Shown piece after piece: positions 14,887-18,452 of a stretch of DNA of 35,604 nucleotides. Origin of the DNA: Actinomycetota bacterium (GTDB lineage Bacteria > Actinomycetota > Thermoleophilia > Gaiellales > Gaiellaceae). Under the pieces are notes generated by a model. It saw only the letters and a list, made by a program, of their open reading frames with translations. It was not told the DNA's origin and did not search any database. Every line of letters begins with the position of its first letter. The first letter of the stretch is position 1. The stretch is from contig OMIZ01000143.1 in NCBI GenBank assembly GCA_900299235.1, positions 1-35,604 on the forward strand, in the 5' to 3' direction. The translations under genes were made by a program, and so were the position numbers.

Positions 14887-15939
14887 ATGGCCGATGTCCA
14901 GCTCAACGCAATCACCCGCCTGTACGGAAATGTCATCGCTCTCGCGGGGATCTCACTCGATTTGGCAGCCGGCGAGCTCGTCTCGCTCCTCGGCCCAAGC
15001 GGCTGCGGGAAGACAACCGCCCTTCGCATCCTCGCCGGATTCGAAACGCCGACCTCTGGAACTGTCTCGATCGGCGGGAAGAACGTCACGGGGCTCACTC
15101 CGAGCCGACGGGGAGTCGGAATGGTGTTCCAGGCCTACAGCCTGTTCCCAACGATGACGGCGCTGCGGAACGTCGAGTTCGGACTTCGCGTTCGTGGAGT
15201 GAAATTATCTCGCCGCAAGAAGCTCGCTACAGACCTGCTCGAACTCGTGGGTCTCGGCCATGCTGCCCACCGGTACCCGCATCAGCTTTCGGGTGGCATG
15301 CAGCAGCGAGTGGCACTGGCGCGCGCGCTCGCCATCCAGCCGCGTGTCCTGCTCCTCGACGAGCCGCTCTCGGCGCTCGATGCGAAGGTGCGTGTCCAGC
15401 TACGCGATGAGATCCGCCGTCTCCAGACCTCCCTCGGTATCACGACCCTGTATGTGACGCACGATCAAGAGGAGGCGCTCTCTGTCTCCGATCGCGTGGC
15501 GGTCATGCGCGACGGACGTGTCGAGCAGATCGGCCCCCCGGCCGAAATCTATGGTGAGCCGGCGACGCCGTTCGTCGCCGAGTTCATCGGGACGATCAAC
15601 CGAATCGAATCGCTCATCGGAGCAGAAGGCACGGTGCTCGCCGGGTCGGCGACGTTTTGCCTCCCCGCGGCGGCCGGTCACGCGCTGGGCGATCGCGTCG
15701 TCGTACTCGTGCGTCCGGAGACGGTTGCGATCGGCACCTCCGTCAACGGGCATGGAGTGAAACTCGAGGCCACCGTCATCACCTCGACGTTCCTTGGGGC
15801 AACGACGCGCGTCCGCCTCGATACACCTGCAGGCACCTTCACAGCCGATGTACCAAGCGCAGGGAGCGGTGCGTTGACGCCCGGGTCTACGGTCCCGATC
15901 GGATTCGACCCGATCTCGGCACGCATCCTCGCGCTCTAG
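14887..15939 (+). CDS. ABC transporter ATPase (importer 2)
   Basis: Cytoplasmic ATPase, 350 aa, with Walker A GPSGCGKTT, Q-loop VFQAYSLFP, signature LSGGMQQRVALARAL, Walker B LLLDEP and H-loop VTHDQEEA, then a C-terminal TOBE domain (LVRPETVAIG). AAGGAG at 14873-14878 stands 8 nt before the ATG. It closes the four-gene operon and meets the HAD gene tail to tail. Its sequence type (PotA/FbpC/PhnT-like) does not fix the substrate. Confidence 0.92.
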   Translation: MADVQLNAITRLYGNVIALAGISLDLAAGELVSLLGPSGCGKTTALRILAGFETPTSGTVSIGGKNVTGLTPSRRGVGMVFQAYSLFPTMTALRNVEFGLRVRGVKLSRRKKLATDLLELVGLGHAAHRYPHQLSGGMQQRVALARALAIQPRVLLLDEPLSALDAKVRVQLRDEIRRLQTSLGITTLYVTHDQEEALSVSDRVAVMRDGRVEQIGPPAEIYGEPATPFVAEFIGTINRIESLIGAEGTVLAGSATFCLPAAAGHALGDRVVVLVRPETVAIGTSVNGHGVKLEATVITSTFLGATTRVRLDTPAGTFTADVPSAGSGALTPGSTVPIGFDPISARILAL

Positions 15940-15961
15940 GCCGTCTCCGACAGCCTAGAGC
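15933..15961. terminator. Bidirectional hairpin between convergent ATPase and HAD genes
   Basis: GCTCTAGGC (15933-15941) and GCCTAGAGC (15953-15961) form a perfect 9-bp stem with an 11-nt loop. One arm contains the TAG stop of the ATPase and the other arm overlaps the first base of the HAD stop triplet. It can serve as a shared terminator; neither side has a T-run. Confidence 0.6.
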
Positions 15962-16623
15962 TAGGCAACACGTGCGAGCGGACCAAAGATCCGCTCAAGC
16001 GCAGGTACGTCGAAACGGTCGAGCAGCAGATCGGCGTGGCGCAATCTCGCCGCGGGCATGGTCGTGGTGATGGCCGCGCATTGCAGGCCGGCTGTTTTGG
16101 CGGCAGCCACTCCTGCTTCGGAGTCCTCGATCGCGACCGACGCCGACGGCGCTACACCGAGGAGGCTGCACGCCCGGCGGTAGCACTCGGGATCAGGTTT
16201 GAGCGTCGAGACATCGTCAGCACATACGAGGACTGACACGAAGTCGGCAAGTCCTGCACCTGCAAGAACGGGTTCGACTTCGACACGGAATGCGCTCGTC
16301 ACGACCGCGACAGGCACAAGCTCGGCAGCCAACCTCAACGCTTGGCGAGCCTCATGAGGCACGGTCGAGCCCGCGCCAGCTGCGTGCGCATACCGCGAGA
16401 TCCGTTCGACGAGCAACACCTCGATCGACTCTGAAGCCGAAAACACGTCATCGAAGATCTCAAGGTCGCTGCGGCCGGCGAGCTCATCGACATATCGCTC
16501 ACGCGTCAACGACATGCCACGTGCGCTCGCCATCTCGGCGTAGACCTCAAAAAGCACCGACTCGTCGTCCGAGAGCGTTCCGTTGAAGTCAACGAGGAGC
16601 GCTTGAGGAGTCCTGAGGGCCAT
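15961..16623 (-). CDS. HAD superfamily hydrolase with Asn in the DxN motif
   Basis: HAD-IA-like protein, 220 aa: motif I VDFNGTLSDD (Asp12, Asn14), motif II TSAF, motif III Lys in LKPDPECYRRA, motif IV AIEDSEAG. Most HAD phosphatases have DxDxT; here the second Asp, the general acid/base, is Asn14. Loss of this residue usually weakens phosphatase activity, and phosphonatase-type HADs also depart here (Ala). The start is supported by CATGAT exactly 6 nt before the ATG on the minus strand. It is convergent with importer 2. A role in phosphorylated metabolite turnover is inferred only. Confidence 0.82.
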   Translation of the reverse strand: MALRTPQALLVDFNGTLSDDESVLFEVYAEMASARGMSLTRERYVDELAGRSDLEIFDDVFSASESIEVLLVERISRYAHAAGAGSTVPHEARQALRLAAELVPVAVVTSAFRVEVEPVLAGAGLADFVSVLVCADDVSTLKPDPECYRRACSLLGVAPSASVAIEDSEAGVAAAKTAGLQCAAITTTMPAARLRHADLLLDRFDVPALERIFGPLARVA

Positions 16624-16665
16624 GAGGTGATCATGCAGGCTCTAACCCAAAAGGGGTATGCGAAA

Positions 16666-16699
16666 TACGGCCCTGTATCGAAATCGAGACAGGACCGTA
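16666..16699. repeat. 34-bp near-palindrome upstream of the HAD gene and eamA
   Basis: TACGG-c-CCTGT-a-TCGA-AA-TCGA-g-ACAGG-a-CCGTA is symmetric about 16682.5 with only two mismatched pairs and the central AA. It lies 43 bp from the HAD start in the divergent HAD/eamA region. A DNA operator for a dimeric or tetrameric regulator fits better than an RNA hairpin, because the central TCGA arms leave almost no loop. Confidence 0.5.
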
Positions 16700-16766
16700 C
16701 CCCCCACCGCCGCAGCCCTTGCCTACCCTCACTTCACGAAGGATCCCCTCCTCTGCTTCCTTCATC

Positions 16767-16804
16767 GGCTCCGGGGGACGTCATGACCGCCGTCCCCTGG
16801 AGCC
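16767..16804 (+). promoter_or_regulatory. Leader hairpin 1 of eamA (14-bp stem)
   Basis: Arms 16767-16780 and 16791-16804 pair over 14 positions (13 Watson-Crick pairs and one G-U) around a 10-nt loop, TCATGACCGC. An in-frame ATG falls inside the loop. This is far stronger than expected by chance and lies about 110 nt before the proposed eamA start, so it probably forms in the eamA leader RNA. Confidence 0.6.
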
Positions 16805-16815
16805 CGCCGGTTTCG

Positions 16816-16848
16816 GTGTTGGGAGAGCACCGAGAGCTCTCCCAACAC
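16816..16848 (+). promoter_or_regulatory. Leader hairpin 2 of eamA (13-bp perfect stem)
   Basis: GTGTTGGGAGAGC (16816-16828) and its perfect complement (16836-16848) form a 13-bp stem with a 7-nt loop, ACCGAGA. It is not followed by a T-run on either strand, and the upstream gene runs away from it, so it is not an ordinary gene-end terminator. With hairpin 1 it suggests attenuation or ligand sensing ahead of the exporter. Confidence 0.6.
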
Positions 16849-16914
16849 GACCCTCATCTCACGTCGCAACCTCCGCTCCTGATAGAGAAGGATGATGCGA
16901 GAACGGGAGACTCA

Positions 16915-17796
16915 TTGAGCCGCCGCGGGCTACTGCTCTTCGCGTCGATGTGCGTGATCTGGGGAATCCCGTACCTGATGATCCGCGTGGCGGTGAAAGA
17001 GCTGGCGCCATCGGTGCTCGTCTTTGCGCGCACCGGGCTTTCGGCCCTCGTCCTGCTCCCGCTTGCATTCGCCCAAGGAGCAATACGGCCTGTGCTCGCA
17101 CGCTGGAAGCCGTTCCTGCTCTTCGCGTTCCTTGAGATCGCGCTGCCATGGATCTTCCTCGCGCGCGCTGAACAGAAGATCTCGAGCTCGCTCACAGCTT
17201 TGCTGATCGCAGCGGTGCCCCTTATCGGTGCGACAACCGCGTTGTTTGTCGGTGGCGACGACCGCATTGACGCGCGACGAGCGTTCGGCCTCGTCATCGG
17301 TGTGCTCGGAGTTGCAGCTCTTGTCGGACTCGACCTGCACACAACGAGCGCACTCGCGATCGTCGAAGTCGGGATCGTCGCATTCGGGTACGCCACCGGC
17401 CCACTCGTGCTCACGCGAAGCCTCTCCGACCTCCCGGGAATCGGAGTGATCGCTGCATCGCTCGGACTCTGCGCAGTCGTTTACGCACCAGCGGCAGCAG
17501 TCAACCTTCCCCCGACGTTCCCGAGCTTCAAGGTGACCGCCGCAGTACTCGGGCTGTCATTGATCTGCACCGCGCTGGCCTTCATCGTCTTCTTCAAGTT
17601 GATCGCCGAGATCGGCCCGGTGCGATCGACGGTGATCACCTACGTCAACCCGGCGGTCGCAGCAGTTCTTGGTGTCGCGCTACTGCACGAGAAGTTCACT
17701 GCCGGAATGGGCGTCGGCTTCGTGCTGATCCTCGCAGGCTCGTACCTCGCGACGCGACGCGCGCAGAAGATCCCCGCCCCCGTCACCGATCCGTAA
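16915..17796 (+). CDS. EamA/DMT-family transporter
   Basis: Inner-membrane drug/metabolite transporter, 293 aa from the chosen start, with about ten hydrophobic segments forming two EamA repeats. The first repeat begins GLLLFASMCVIWGIPYLMIRV, the family's usual opening. The frame is open from 16603, but the extra residues are hydrophilic and overlay two perfect hairpins. The TTG at 16915 has GGGAG 5 nt upstream and gives the usual family length. The alternative ATG at 16783 would add 44 residues. Family members export amino acids or other metabolites; substrate is unknown here. Confidence 0.85.
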   Translation: MSRRGLLLFASMCVIWGIPYLMIRVAVKELAPSVLVFARTGLSALVLLPLAFAQGAIRPVLARWKPFLLFAFLEIALPWIFLARAEQKISSSLTALLIAAVPLIGATTALFVGGDDRIDARRAFGLVIGVLGVAALVGLDLHTTSALAIVEVGIVAFGYATGPLVLTRSLSDLPGIGVIAASLGLCAVVYAPAAAVNLPPTFPSFKVTAAVLGLSLICTALAFIVFFKLIAEIGPVRSTVITYVNPAVAAVLGVALLHEKFTAGMGVGFVLILAGSYLATRRAQKIPAPVTDP

Positions 17797-17863: not shown

Positions 17864-18029
17864 GGTTGCGTCTTGCACCGAGCACGGAGCGCGAGTAAGT
17901 CGAAGCCGCTTCCGGGGACTGTTACGCAAAGGGCCTTCGGGTCCGAGGGCGGAAGGTCAACGGAGGCGGGGGATGAAAGCGCAACCGGCTCGGTGAACCT
18001 TTTTAACCCGAAAAGGTGACGGGTTCGCC
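17864..18029 (+). ncRNA. Candidate structured RNA upstream of the receiver gene
   Basis: The 269-nt gap 17797-18065 has no gene. A long-range helix joins 17876-17892 with 17979-17995 (8 + 3 + 4 bp, interrupted by a bulged A and a small internal loop). Inside it are GTAAGTC/GACTGTTAC with a 2-nt bulge (17895-17925) and GGGCC-TTCG-GGTCC (17931-17944). Downstream, GGTGAACC (17992-17999) can instead pair with GGTTCGCC (18022-18029), competing with the long helix. ACGCAAAG just before the UUCG hairpin recalls the c-di-GMP-I riboswitch core, but other core elements do not fit well. Not assigned to a family. Confidence 0.3.
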
Positions 18030-18065: not shown

Positions 18066-18452
18066 ATGAGCGAGGCACAGCCAGCAGCCGGGAAGGTCCT
18101 GTACGTCGACGACGAGGAAGCGCTCGCCGGACTCGCCGTGCGGGTCCTTGAACGTGCGGGCTACGCCGCTGAGTCGTACACCGCTCCGGAGGCGGCGCTC
18201 ACAGCATTCTCCGCTGACCCTGGCGCATACGCGCTGGTCATGACCGACCACAACATGCCTGGCATGTCAGGTCTCGATCTCGCAATCAAGCTTCACGAGA
18301 TTCGGTCGGAGGTACCGGTGCTGCTGTTCTCCGGGTATGTGAACGATGAGATCCGCGCGCAGGCGGTCGTGCTCGGCATCAAGGCGATCCTTGACAAGCC
18401 CACGCCCATGACGGAGCTCGTCGCTGCCGTGCGAACGCACATCCTCACGTAA
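18066..18452 (+). CDS. Single-domain response regulator (receiver only)
   Basis: A 128-aa receiver domain without an output domain. Asp15-Asp16 form the acid pocket, Asp61 (MTDHNMPGMSG) is the phosphoacceptor, Ser89 (LLFSGY) and Lys111 (LDKP) complete the switch set. The pattern resembles CheY-like or hybrid-kinase receivers, probably acting by protein contacts. CACAAT lies exactly 6 nt before the ATG, suggesting a leaderless transcript and ruling out the frame extension to 18039. It is convergent with cheY, with 73 nt between stops that contain no clear signal. Confidence 0.85.
   Translation: MSEAQPAAGKVLYVDDEEALAGLAVRVLERAGYAAESYTAPEAALTAFSADPGAYALVMTDHNMPGMSGLDLAIKLHEIRSEVPVLLFSGYVNDEIRAQAVVLGIKAILDKPTPMTELVAAVRTHILT

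What the first reader, a model, noticed from the sequence alone, without database searches (positions are those of the whole stretch)
16767..16848. Two long hairpins in the leader of eamA: candidate cis-regulatory RNA
A 14-bp stem (one G-U) and a 13-bp perfect stem lie 11 nt apart, upstream of the proposed TTG start. Neither ends a gene, because the upstream gene runs the other way. An ATG sits in the first loop, in frame with the exporter, so a leader-peptide or start-choice mechanism is also possible. I know of no named riboswitch with this layout.
Basis: partly seen in the sequence, partly recalled or inferred. Interest (0 to 1): 0.62.

Follow-up and report, generated by a model that had tools for sequence, protein, structure and literature searches.

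The report
Conserved hairpin upstream of eamA's promoter
Two real hairpins lie upstream of a transporter gene in an uncultured actinobacterium, but only the first is conserved and the gene's own start signal appears to lie after both, so they look more like part of a separate small transcript or stop signals than a switch inside the gene's message.

Summary
The two hairpins exist exactly as described and are far beyond chance, but the riboswitch-like reading is only partly supported. The closest relative (91% identical EamA) has diverged so far that only 46% of fourfold-degenerate eamA sites still match. Hairpin 2 is not conserved (39%). In eamA relatives the recognisable promoter-like element lies within about 45 nt of the start. 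Here CTGATAGA sits at 16879-16886, downstream of both hairpins. It precedes a 7-codon ORF whose TGA overlaps eamA's TTG. Leaderless start signals are demonstrably common in this genome. Best reading: the eamA mRNA starts near 16895 and uses a leaderless 'coupled' mini-ORF. Hairpin 1 is probably the 3' hairpin of a separate short RNA starting near 16736, and hairpin 2 an accessory terminator-like hairpin. No covariation test is possible with two sequences, and no transcription data exist. In passing, a covarying RNA without an Rfam match was found 1 kb downstream.

The parts
15961..16623 (-). Divergent HAD-family hydrolase gene (neighbour; its 5' end bounds the region)
   Evidence: Pfam HAD_2 7e-23; -10-like CATGAT 6 nt before its ATG, CATTAT 6 nt before GTG in the relative
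16630..16635 (-). -10-like element of the HAD gene (CATGAT read on the - strand), leaderless spacing N6
   Evidence: read from sequence, counterpart in G010; genome-wide leaderless signal
16666..16699 (.). H0: upstream palindrome, core CCTGT-a-TCGAAATCGA-g-ACAGG; perfect 11-bp arms in G010; possible protein-binding site shared by the divergent promoters
   Evidence: 92% identity for 16670-16694 vs 46% at fourfold sites; fold z = -5.6; unique in the genome and found only in G000 and G010 of 41 genomes
16724..16729 (+). TACCCT, candidate -10 (P1) 6 nt before the conserved block
   Evidence: conserved in G010 with spacing 6/7; no -35 consensus; inference
16736..16812 (+). Conserved block: candidate short RNA (C-rich-loop hairpin followed by hairpin 1)
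   Evidence: 91% identity; covariance model R1 finds only G000 and G010 convincingly in 129 genomes
16738..16763 (+). Hairpin A: GAAGGA / UCCUUC stem with loop UCCCCUCCUCUGCU (anti-Shine-Dalgarno-like)
   Evidence: stem identical in both genomes; predicted fold
16767..16804 (+). Hairpin 1 of the finding, 14 bp (one G-U; A-U in the relative), no T-run behind it
16816..16848 (+). Hairpin 2 of the finding, 13 bp perfect; lineage-specific, resembles this genome's gene-end hairpins
   Evidence: (39% identity)
16879..16888 (+). CTGATAGAGA: proposed eamA promoter element (extended -10-like)
   Evidence: CTG[AG]TAGA in 6 eamA loci (own, L010, L011, L012, L013, L019), once per locus on the + strand, 8-9 nt before a start codon
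16895..16918 (+). Proposed leaderless mini-ORF MRERETH*, TGA overlapping the eamA start (TTGA)
   Evidence: G010: MRERDTQ* overlapping ATGA; same layout in L022, L048, L103, L105; 7 other such coupled mini-ORFs in 543 kb of this genome
16915..17796 (+). eamA (EamA-type transporter, TTG start)
   Evidence: Pfam EamA 8.7e-31

Best explanation
The region between the divergent HAD and eamA genes is a three-part control region rather than a long eamA leader. (1) The main eamA mRNA starts near 16895, right after CTGATAGAGA, so neither hairpin is in it. A 7-codon leaderless ORF loads the ribosome, and its stop overlaps eamA's TTG, so eamA is translated by termination-reinitiation. (2) Hairpin 1 closes a separate, short, selectively conserved + strand transcript of about 70-115 nt, starting near 16736. 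It has a small hairpin whose loop is C-rich and anti-Shine-Dalgarno-like (CCCCUCCUCU), followed by the strong G+C-rich hairpin 1 as end/terminator: a candidate small regulatory RNA, with hairpin 2 as a recently acquired second, terminator-like hairpin that also shields eamA's promoter from read-through. (3) The upstream palindrome H0 is probably the regulator site for the divergent promoters. Shown: the hairpins, the conservation pattern, the genome-wide leaderless start signal, the promoter-like motif and the overlapping mini-ORFs. Inferred: both transcription starts, termination at hairpins 1 and 2, any trans action of the short RNA, and H0 as an operator.
For: Selection: H0 92%, block 91%, 16851-16914 84%, against 46% at eamA fourfold sites and 39% at hairpin 2. 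Promoter position: leaderless start signals are common here (TANNNT 6-7 nt before candidate starts in 3.3% and 2.0%, control 0.04-0.08%), and across 44 eamA loci the recognisable promoter-like elements lie within about 45 nt of the start. CTG[AG]TAGA 8-9 nt before a start codon in six loci. Coupled mini-ORF: 5 lineages, all in the one frame whose TGA overlaps the start, plus 7 other genes of this genome; the 'coupled' RTGA class is described in mycobacteria (PMC4633059). Terminator-like: strong hairpins here are mostly in convergent and tandem gaps, rarely with T-runs. Hairpin 1 changes only G-U to A-U, and hairpin A's stem is identical.
Against: The proposed eamA -10 (TAGAGA) lacks the usual final T. 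P1 (TACCCT) has no -35 match, and one TANNNT is expected by chance in such a region. Only two genomes carry the block, so structure rests on one compatible change. Hairpin 1 has no T-run. Two promoters for eamA (one long leader, one short) are not excluded. No RNA data exist for this uncultured organism.
Confidence: 0.48

Rival explanations
1. Cis-regulatory leader: eamA is also or mainly transcribed from the TACCCT promoter near 16724, giving a leader of about 180 nt in which the C-rich hairpin and hairpin 1 act as attenuator or ligand-sensing element.
For: The block is conserved, on the eamA side, with RNA-compatible change. The upstream C-rich loop could compete with the 3' arm of hairpin 1 for its 5' arm (in a truncated G010 fragment GGAGCC pairs with GGCUCC).
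Against: A second, conserved promoter-like element lies downstream of the hairpins. No other eamA relative has a recognisable long leader. Hairpin 2 is not conserved. No Rfam match.
Confidence: 0.2
2. DNA-level operators: H0 and hairpin 1 are palindromic binding sites for regulators of the divergent HAD/eamA pair and never function as RNA.
For: H0 is a perfect palindrome in G010, centred about 53-60 bp from both proposed outer starts. Such sites are typical of divergent promoters.
Against: Hairpin 1 is too long and G+C-rich for a usual operator, and conservation runs through 30 nt of non-palindromic C-rich sequence before it. Its difference is G-U/A-U. No regulator gene is immediately adjacent.
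Confidence: 0.17
3. Alternative N-terminus or start choice: translation can begin at the ATG in the loop of hairpin 1, giving EamA a 44-aa extension, with hairpin 1 hiding a GGGGGA Shine-Dalgarno-like stretch and the ATG.
For: ATG in frame and open in both genomes (44 and 54 codons); AGGGGA/GGGGGA just upstream (and sequence).
Against: The extension scores -12 for coding potential, below all 338 genic windows; G010's scores only +1.6. No other ortholog has it. Within the first 11 codons no synonymous change occurs although fourfold sites are 54% changed.
Confidence: 0.07
4. Bidirectional terminator pair or insulator only, without a short RNA between.
For: Both hairpins resemble this genome's gene-end hairpins.
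Against: Conservation extends 30 nt upstream of hairpin 1 into C-rich sequence, which an insulator does not need.
Confidence: 0.08

Closest known systems
Leaderless 'coupled' small ORFs of mycobacteria (Shell et al. 2015, PMC4633059)
   Same: RTG just after a -10-like element; short ORF whose TGA overlaps the downstream start (RTGA class); several in the genome
   Different: Class Thermoleophilia (inferred), not Mycobacterium; downstream start here is TTG (TTGA); -10 hexamer is non-canonical; no ribosome profiling
Actinobacterial C-rich-loop small RNAs (6C RNA kind)
   Same: Short intergenic candidate RNA with a C-rich hairpin loop followed by a strong hairpin
   Different: One C-rich loop, not two; no Rfam match; present in only two genomes
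Actinobacterial terminator-like hairpins without a T-run
   Same: G+C-rich 12-18 bp stems, short loops, between genes
   Different: Located between two divergent genes, where such hairpins are rare
Riboswitch or attenuator leaders
   Same: Two structured elements upstream of a transporter gene
   Different: Probably outside the main mRNA; second element not conserved; no family match

Membership tests
Known Rfam RNA family (any of 4227) | Score above the family's gathering threshold | tested here: not met
   No gathering match in the window; best sub-threshold hits are microRNA or snoRNA chance matches
Cis-regulatory leader of eamA | Element lies inside the eamA mRNA 5' UTR | tested here: inconclusive
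   Comparative placement of the promoter-like element downstream of both hairpins argues against; no RNA data
Cis-regulatory leader of eamA | Structure conserved with compensatory changes upstream of orthologues | tested here: inconclusive
   Only two genomes carry it; 19 of 20 pairs invariant, one G-U/A-U change, no two-sided change; hairpin 2 not conserved
Leaderless coupled mini-ORF | Start codon at the mRNA 5' end, 6-9 nt after a -10 element | tested here: inconclusive
   CTGATAGAGA-N6-ATG here and in G010; hexamer lacks the final T; 5' end not measured
Leaderless coupled mini-ORF | Stop codon overlaps the downstream start (NTGA) | tested here: met
   TTGA here, ATGA in G010, and the same overlap in L022, L048, L103, L105
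6C-type small RNA | Two stem-loops each with a run of about six C in the loop | tested here: not met
   One C-rich loop (UCCCCUCCUCUGCU); no Rfam match; the defining feature itself is from memory
Intrinsic terminator (canonical) | G+C-rich hairpin followed by a T-run | tested here: not met
   Followed by CGCCGGTTTC and GACCCTCATC; most strong intergenic hairpins of this genome also lack a T-run
Small regulatory RNA | Discrete stable transcript acting in trans | not testable with these tools
   Needs RNA-seq or Northern blot

The most novel reading that the evidence does not exclude
Block 16736-16804 is a previously undescribed small regulatory RNA of a Gaiellales lineage, with an anti-Shine-Dalgarno C-rich loop, encoded between two divergent genes and controlled by the H0 palindrome.
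Probability: 0.3. Interest if true: 0.45.

Novelty: new member of a known kind. Interest (0 to 1): 0.33.

Why it matters
It shows how a convincing 'riboswitch-like' pair of hairpins can fall outside the message it seems to control once the promoter is placed comparatively. It also suggests that leaderless starts and coupled mini-ORFs, known from mycobacteria, extend to uncultured Thermoleophilia, where promoter and small-RNA biology is little explored.

Tried and rejected
Dispersed repeat or mobile element: no second copy of the region in the genome, none in plasmids, phages or viral contigs. The short hits in other genomes that I read (L040, L041) look like chance matches inside genes. Rfam at permissive thresholds: only chance microRNA or snoRNA hits. 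More relatives: genus, family and order searches by DNA, pattern and covariance model give only G010; two weak model hits (G023, G100) are unconvincing, the one printed having generic pairing only. Hairpin 2 maintained with another sequence in G010: its replacement folds no better than shuffles. First orthologue alignment was invalid because minus-strand loci were not turned; redone. Conserved small protein from the loop ATG: rejected (and codon changes). 16S 3'-end mimicry (GGAUCcCCUCCUcU) noted, but G010 lacks part of it, so not pursued.

Full report
WHAT IS THERE. The window lies in a fragmented assembly (2.1 Mb, 186 contigs). The nearest relative with the same locus is an 'uncultured actinobacterium' bin from Kiruna (G010 = CAIWTI01). 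A Gaiella genome carries a more distant eamA, which together with the relatives' grouping suggests class Thermoleophilia, order Gaiellales (taxonomy inferred, not given). eamA (16915-17796, TTG start, Pfam EamA 8.7e-31) is preceded by a HAD hydrolase gene in the opposite direction (15961-16623). Between them are the two hairpins as described: 16767-16804, 14 bp with one G-U; 16816-16848, 13 bp perfect; 11 nt apart. The fold is much stronger than shuffles (z = -4.4).

BASE RATE. In 543 kb of this genome, stems of at least 12 bp with short loops are about fifty to a hundred times commoner between genes than in shuffled intergenic DNA, and almost absent in genes. They favour convergent gaps (0.81/kb) over tandem (0.32/kb) and divergent gaps (0.31/kb), and rarely have a T-run. 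Only 3 of 59 divergent gaps contain any; this is the only one with two (gene calls were my own simple caller). So such hairpins look like this genome's gene-end signals, and a pair between two divergent genes is odd unless something is transcribed between them.

CONSERVATION. Alignment with G010 gives a footprint. eamA fourfold sites are 46% identical (84 of 183), so anything near 90% is under selection. H0 (16670-16694) 92%; 16695-16723 55%; block 16736-16812 91%; hairpin 2 region 39%, with a longer replacement that does not fold better than shuffles (z = 0.24); 16851-16914 84%. In the block the stem of hairpin 1 differs at one position, G-U here and A-U in G010, and hairpin A (GAAGGA/UCCUUC around UCCCCUCCUCUGCU) is unchanged. 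G-U here would be A-C on the opposite strand, so the change slightly favours + strand RNA. With two sequences there is no two-sided change, and no covariation test is possible. Searches by DNA, pattern and covariance model through the genus, family and order found no third convincing example.

WHERE eamA TRANSCRIPTION STARTS. The genome shows a clear leaderless signal: TANNNT ending 6 or 7 nt before candidate start codons at 3.3% and 2.0%, against 0.04-0.08% for in-gene controls. I then read the 70 nt upstream of 44 eamA loci. Where a promoter-like element can be recognised it lies within about 45 nt of the start: directly leaderless (L011, L012, L013, L019, L024, L099, L101, L121), before a 7-10 codon mini-ORF (own, L010, L022, L048, L103, L105), or with a short leader and a GAGGAGG-type site (several loci of another family). 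Others have an upstream ORF overlapping eamA. The 8-mer CTG[AG]TAGA occurs once on the + strand in each of six loci, always 8-9 nt before a start codon: eamA's own start in L011, L012, L013 and L019, and the mini-ORF start here and in L010. Here it is 16879-16886, downstream of both hairpins. It is inference from comparison, not a measured 5' end, and the hexamer TAGAGA is not canonical.

THE MINI-ORF. ATG 16895 begins MRERETH*, whose TGA overlaps eamA's TTG (TTGA). G010 has MRERDTQ* with ATGA. L022, L048, L103 and L105 have unrelated mini-ORFs with the same overlap. All five lineages use the one frame that gives the overlap; a 1-in-2 choice each time among out-of-frame options would give about 0.03, so this is suggestive only. 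Seven other genes in the sampled part of this genome have the same layout. Shell et al. (PMC4633059) define exactly this 'coupled' class in mycobacteria and show that TTG does not serve at a leaderless position, which would make coupling useful for a TTG-started gene.

WHAT THE BLOCK MAY BE. TACCCT (16724-16729) stands 6 nt (7 in G010) before the point where near-perfect conservation begins (ACGAAGGA, 16736). The block then has an exposed C-rich loop and the strong hairpin 1. That is the general outline of a small regulatory RNA with its 3' hairpin; its loop could pair with Shine-Dalgarno sequences. No -35 element was seen and no transcript is known. H0, between the HAD promoter and this candidate promoter, would suit a regulator-binding site for both. 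Hairpin 2 is either a recent, lineage-specific addition here or was lost in G010.

ALTERNATIVES. A long regulatory leader for eamA remains possible if a second promoter is used. An N-terminal extension from the loop ATG is open in both genomes (44 and 54 codons) but has poor coding statistics, is absent from other orthologues, and its nucleotide conservation is unlike a protein's.

IN PASSING. Downstream of eamA, 17871-18015 is a structured RNA: 10 of 26 consensus pairs show two-sided compensatory change in 33 sequences. It occurs in 97 genomes of the family and 9 others of the order, among 349 genomes of the class, in 1-6 copies, with no Rfam match at gathering in 20 loci and none of note even at E up to 10 for two representatives. 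It deserves its own study.

Noticed in passing
window 17871-18015 (+), between eamA and the response-regulator gene at 18066: Structured RNA of about 125-145 nt, consensus gCRCCGAGCACGGAGCGCGAGUAGGUCGAAGCC...GGACGAAAGCGCnACCGGCUCGGYGAAUUUU, closing stem followed by a U-run in most copies and a CTTGnn...TAGGTT promoter-like sequence just upstream. 10 of 26 pairs with two-sided compensatory changes in 33 sequences. 97 genomes of the family plus 9 of the same order, 1-6 copies per genome, sometimes tandem, none seen in other orders of the class. No Rfam 15 match. Neighbouring genes not consistent in a rough check, so probably a free-standing ncRNA. Candidate new RNA family of Gaiellales.
   Followed up: partly
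G000 C17:10761-10887 (-) (locus L074): Second copy of that RNA in the same genome.
   Followed up: partly
L134, L141, L143, L144: Tandem pairs of that RNA about 240-300 nt apart, each copy apparently with its own promoter-like sequence.
   Followed up: no
own genome, 543 kb sampled: Strong leaderless-transcription signal (TANNNT-N6/7-RTG) and at least 7 leaderless mini-ORFs whose TGA overlaps the next gene's start.
   Followed up: partly
L014, L015, L016, L017, L018, L020: In several relatives eamA follows another gene (by my reading of the peptide, a VKOR/disulfide-bond-type membrane protein) with an ATGA/GTGA overlap instead of the mini-ORF.
   Followed up: no
L011 (G006:C146), and G000 C26 and C30: Palindromic GGGGACTGTCCCC / CCTGTCCC-type repeats, dense beside eamA in G006 and present singly in the window's genome; possible dispersed repeat family.
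   Followed up: no
window 15933-15961: Hairpin of 13 bp (one mismatch) exactly between the convergent ABC-transporter and HAD stop codons, with no T-run: probable shared terminator.
   Followed up: no
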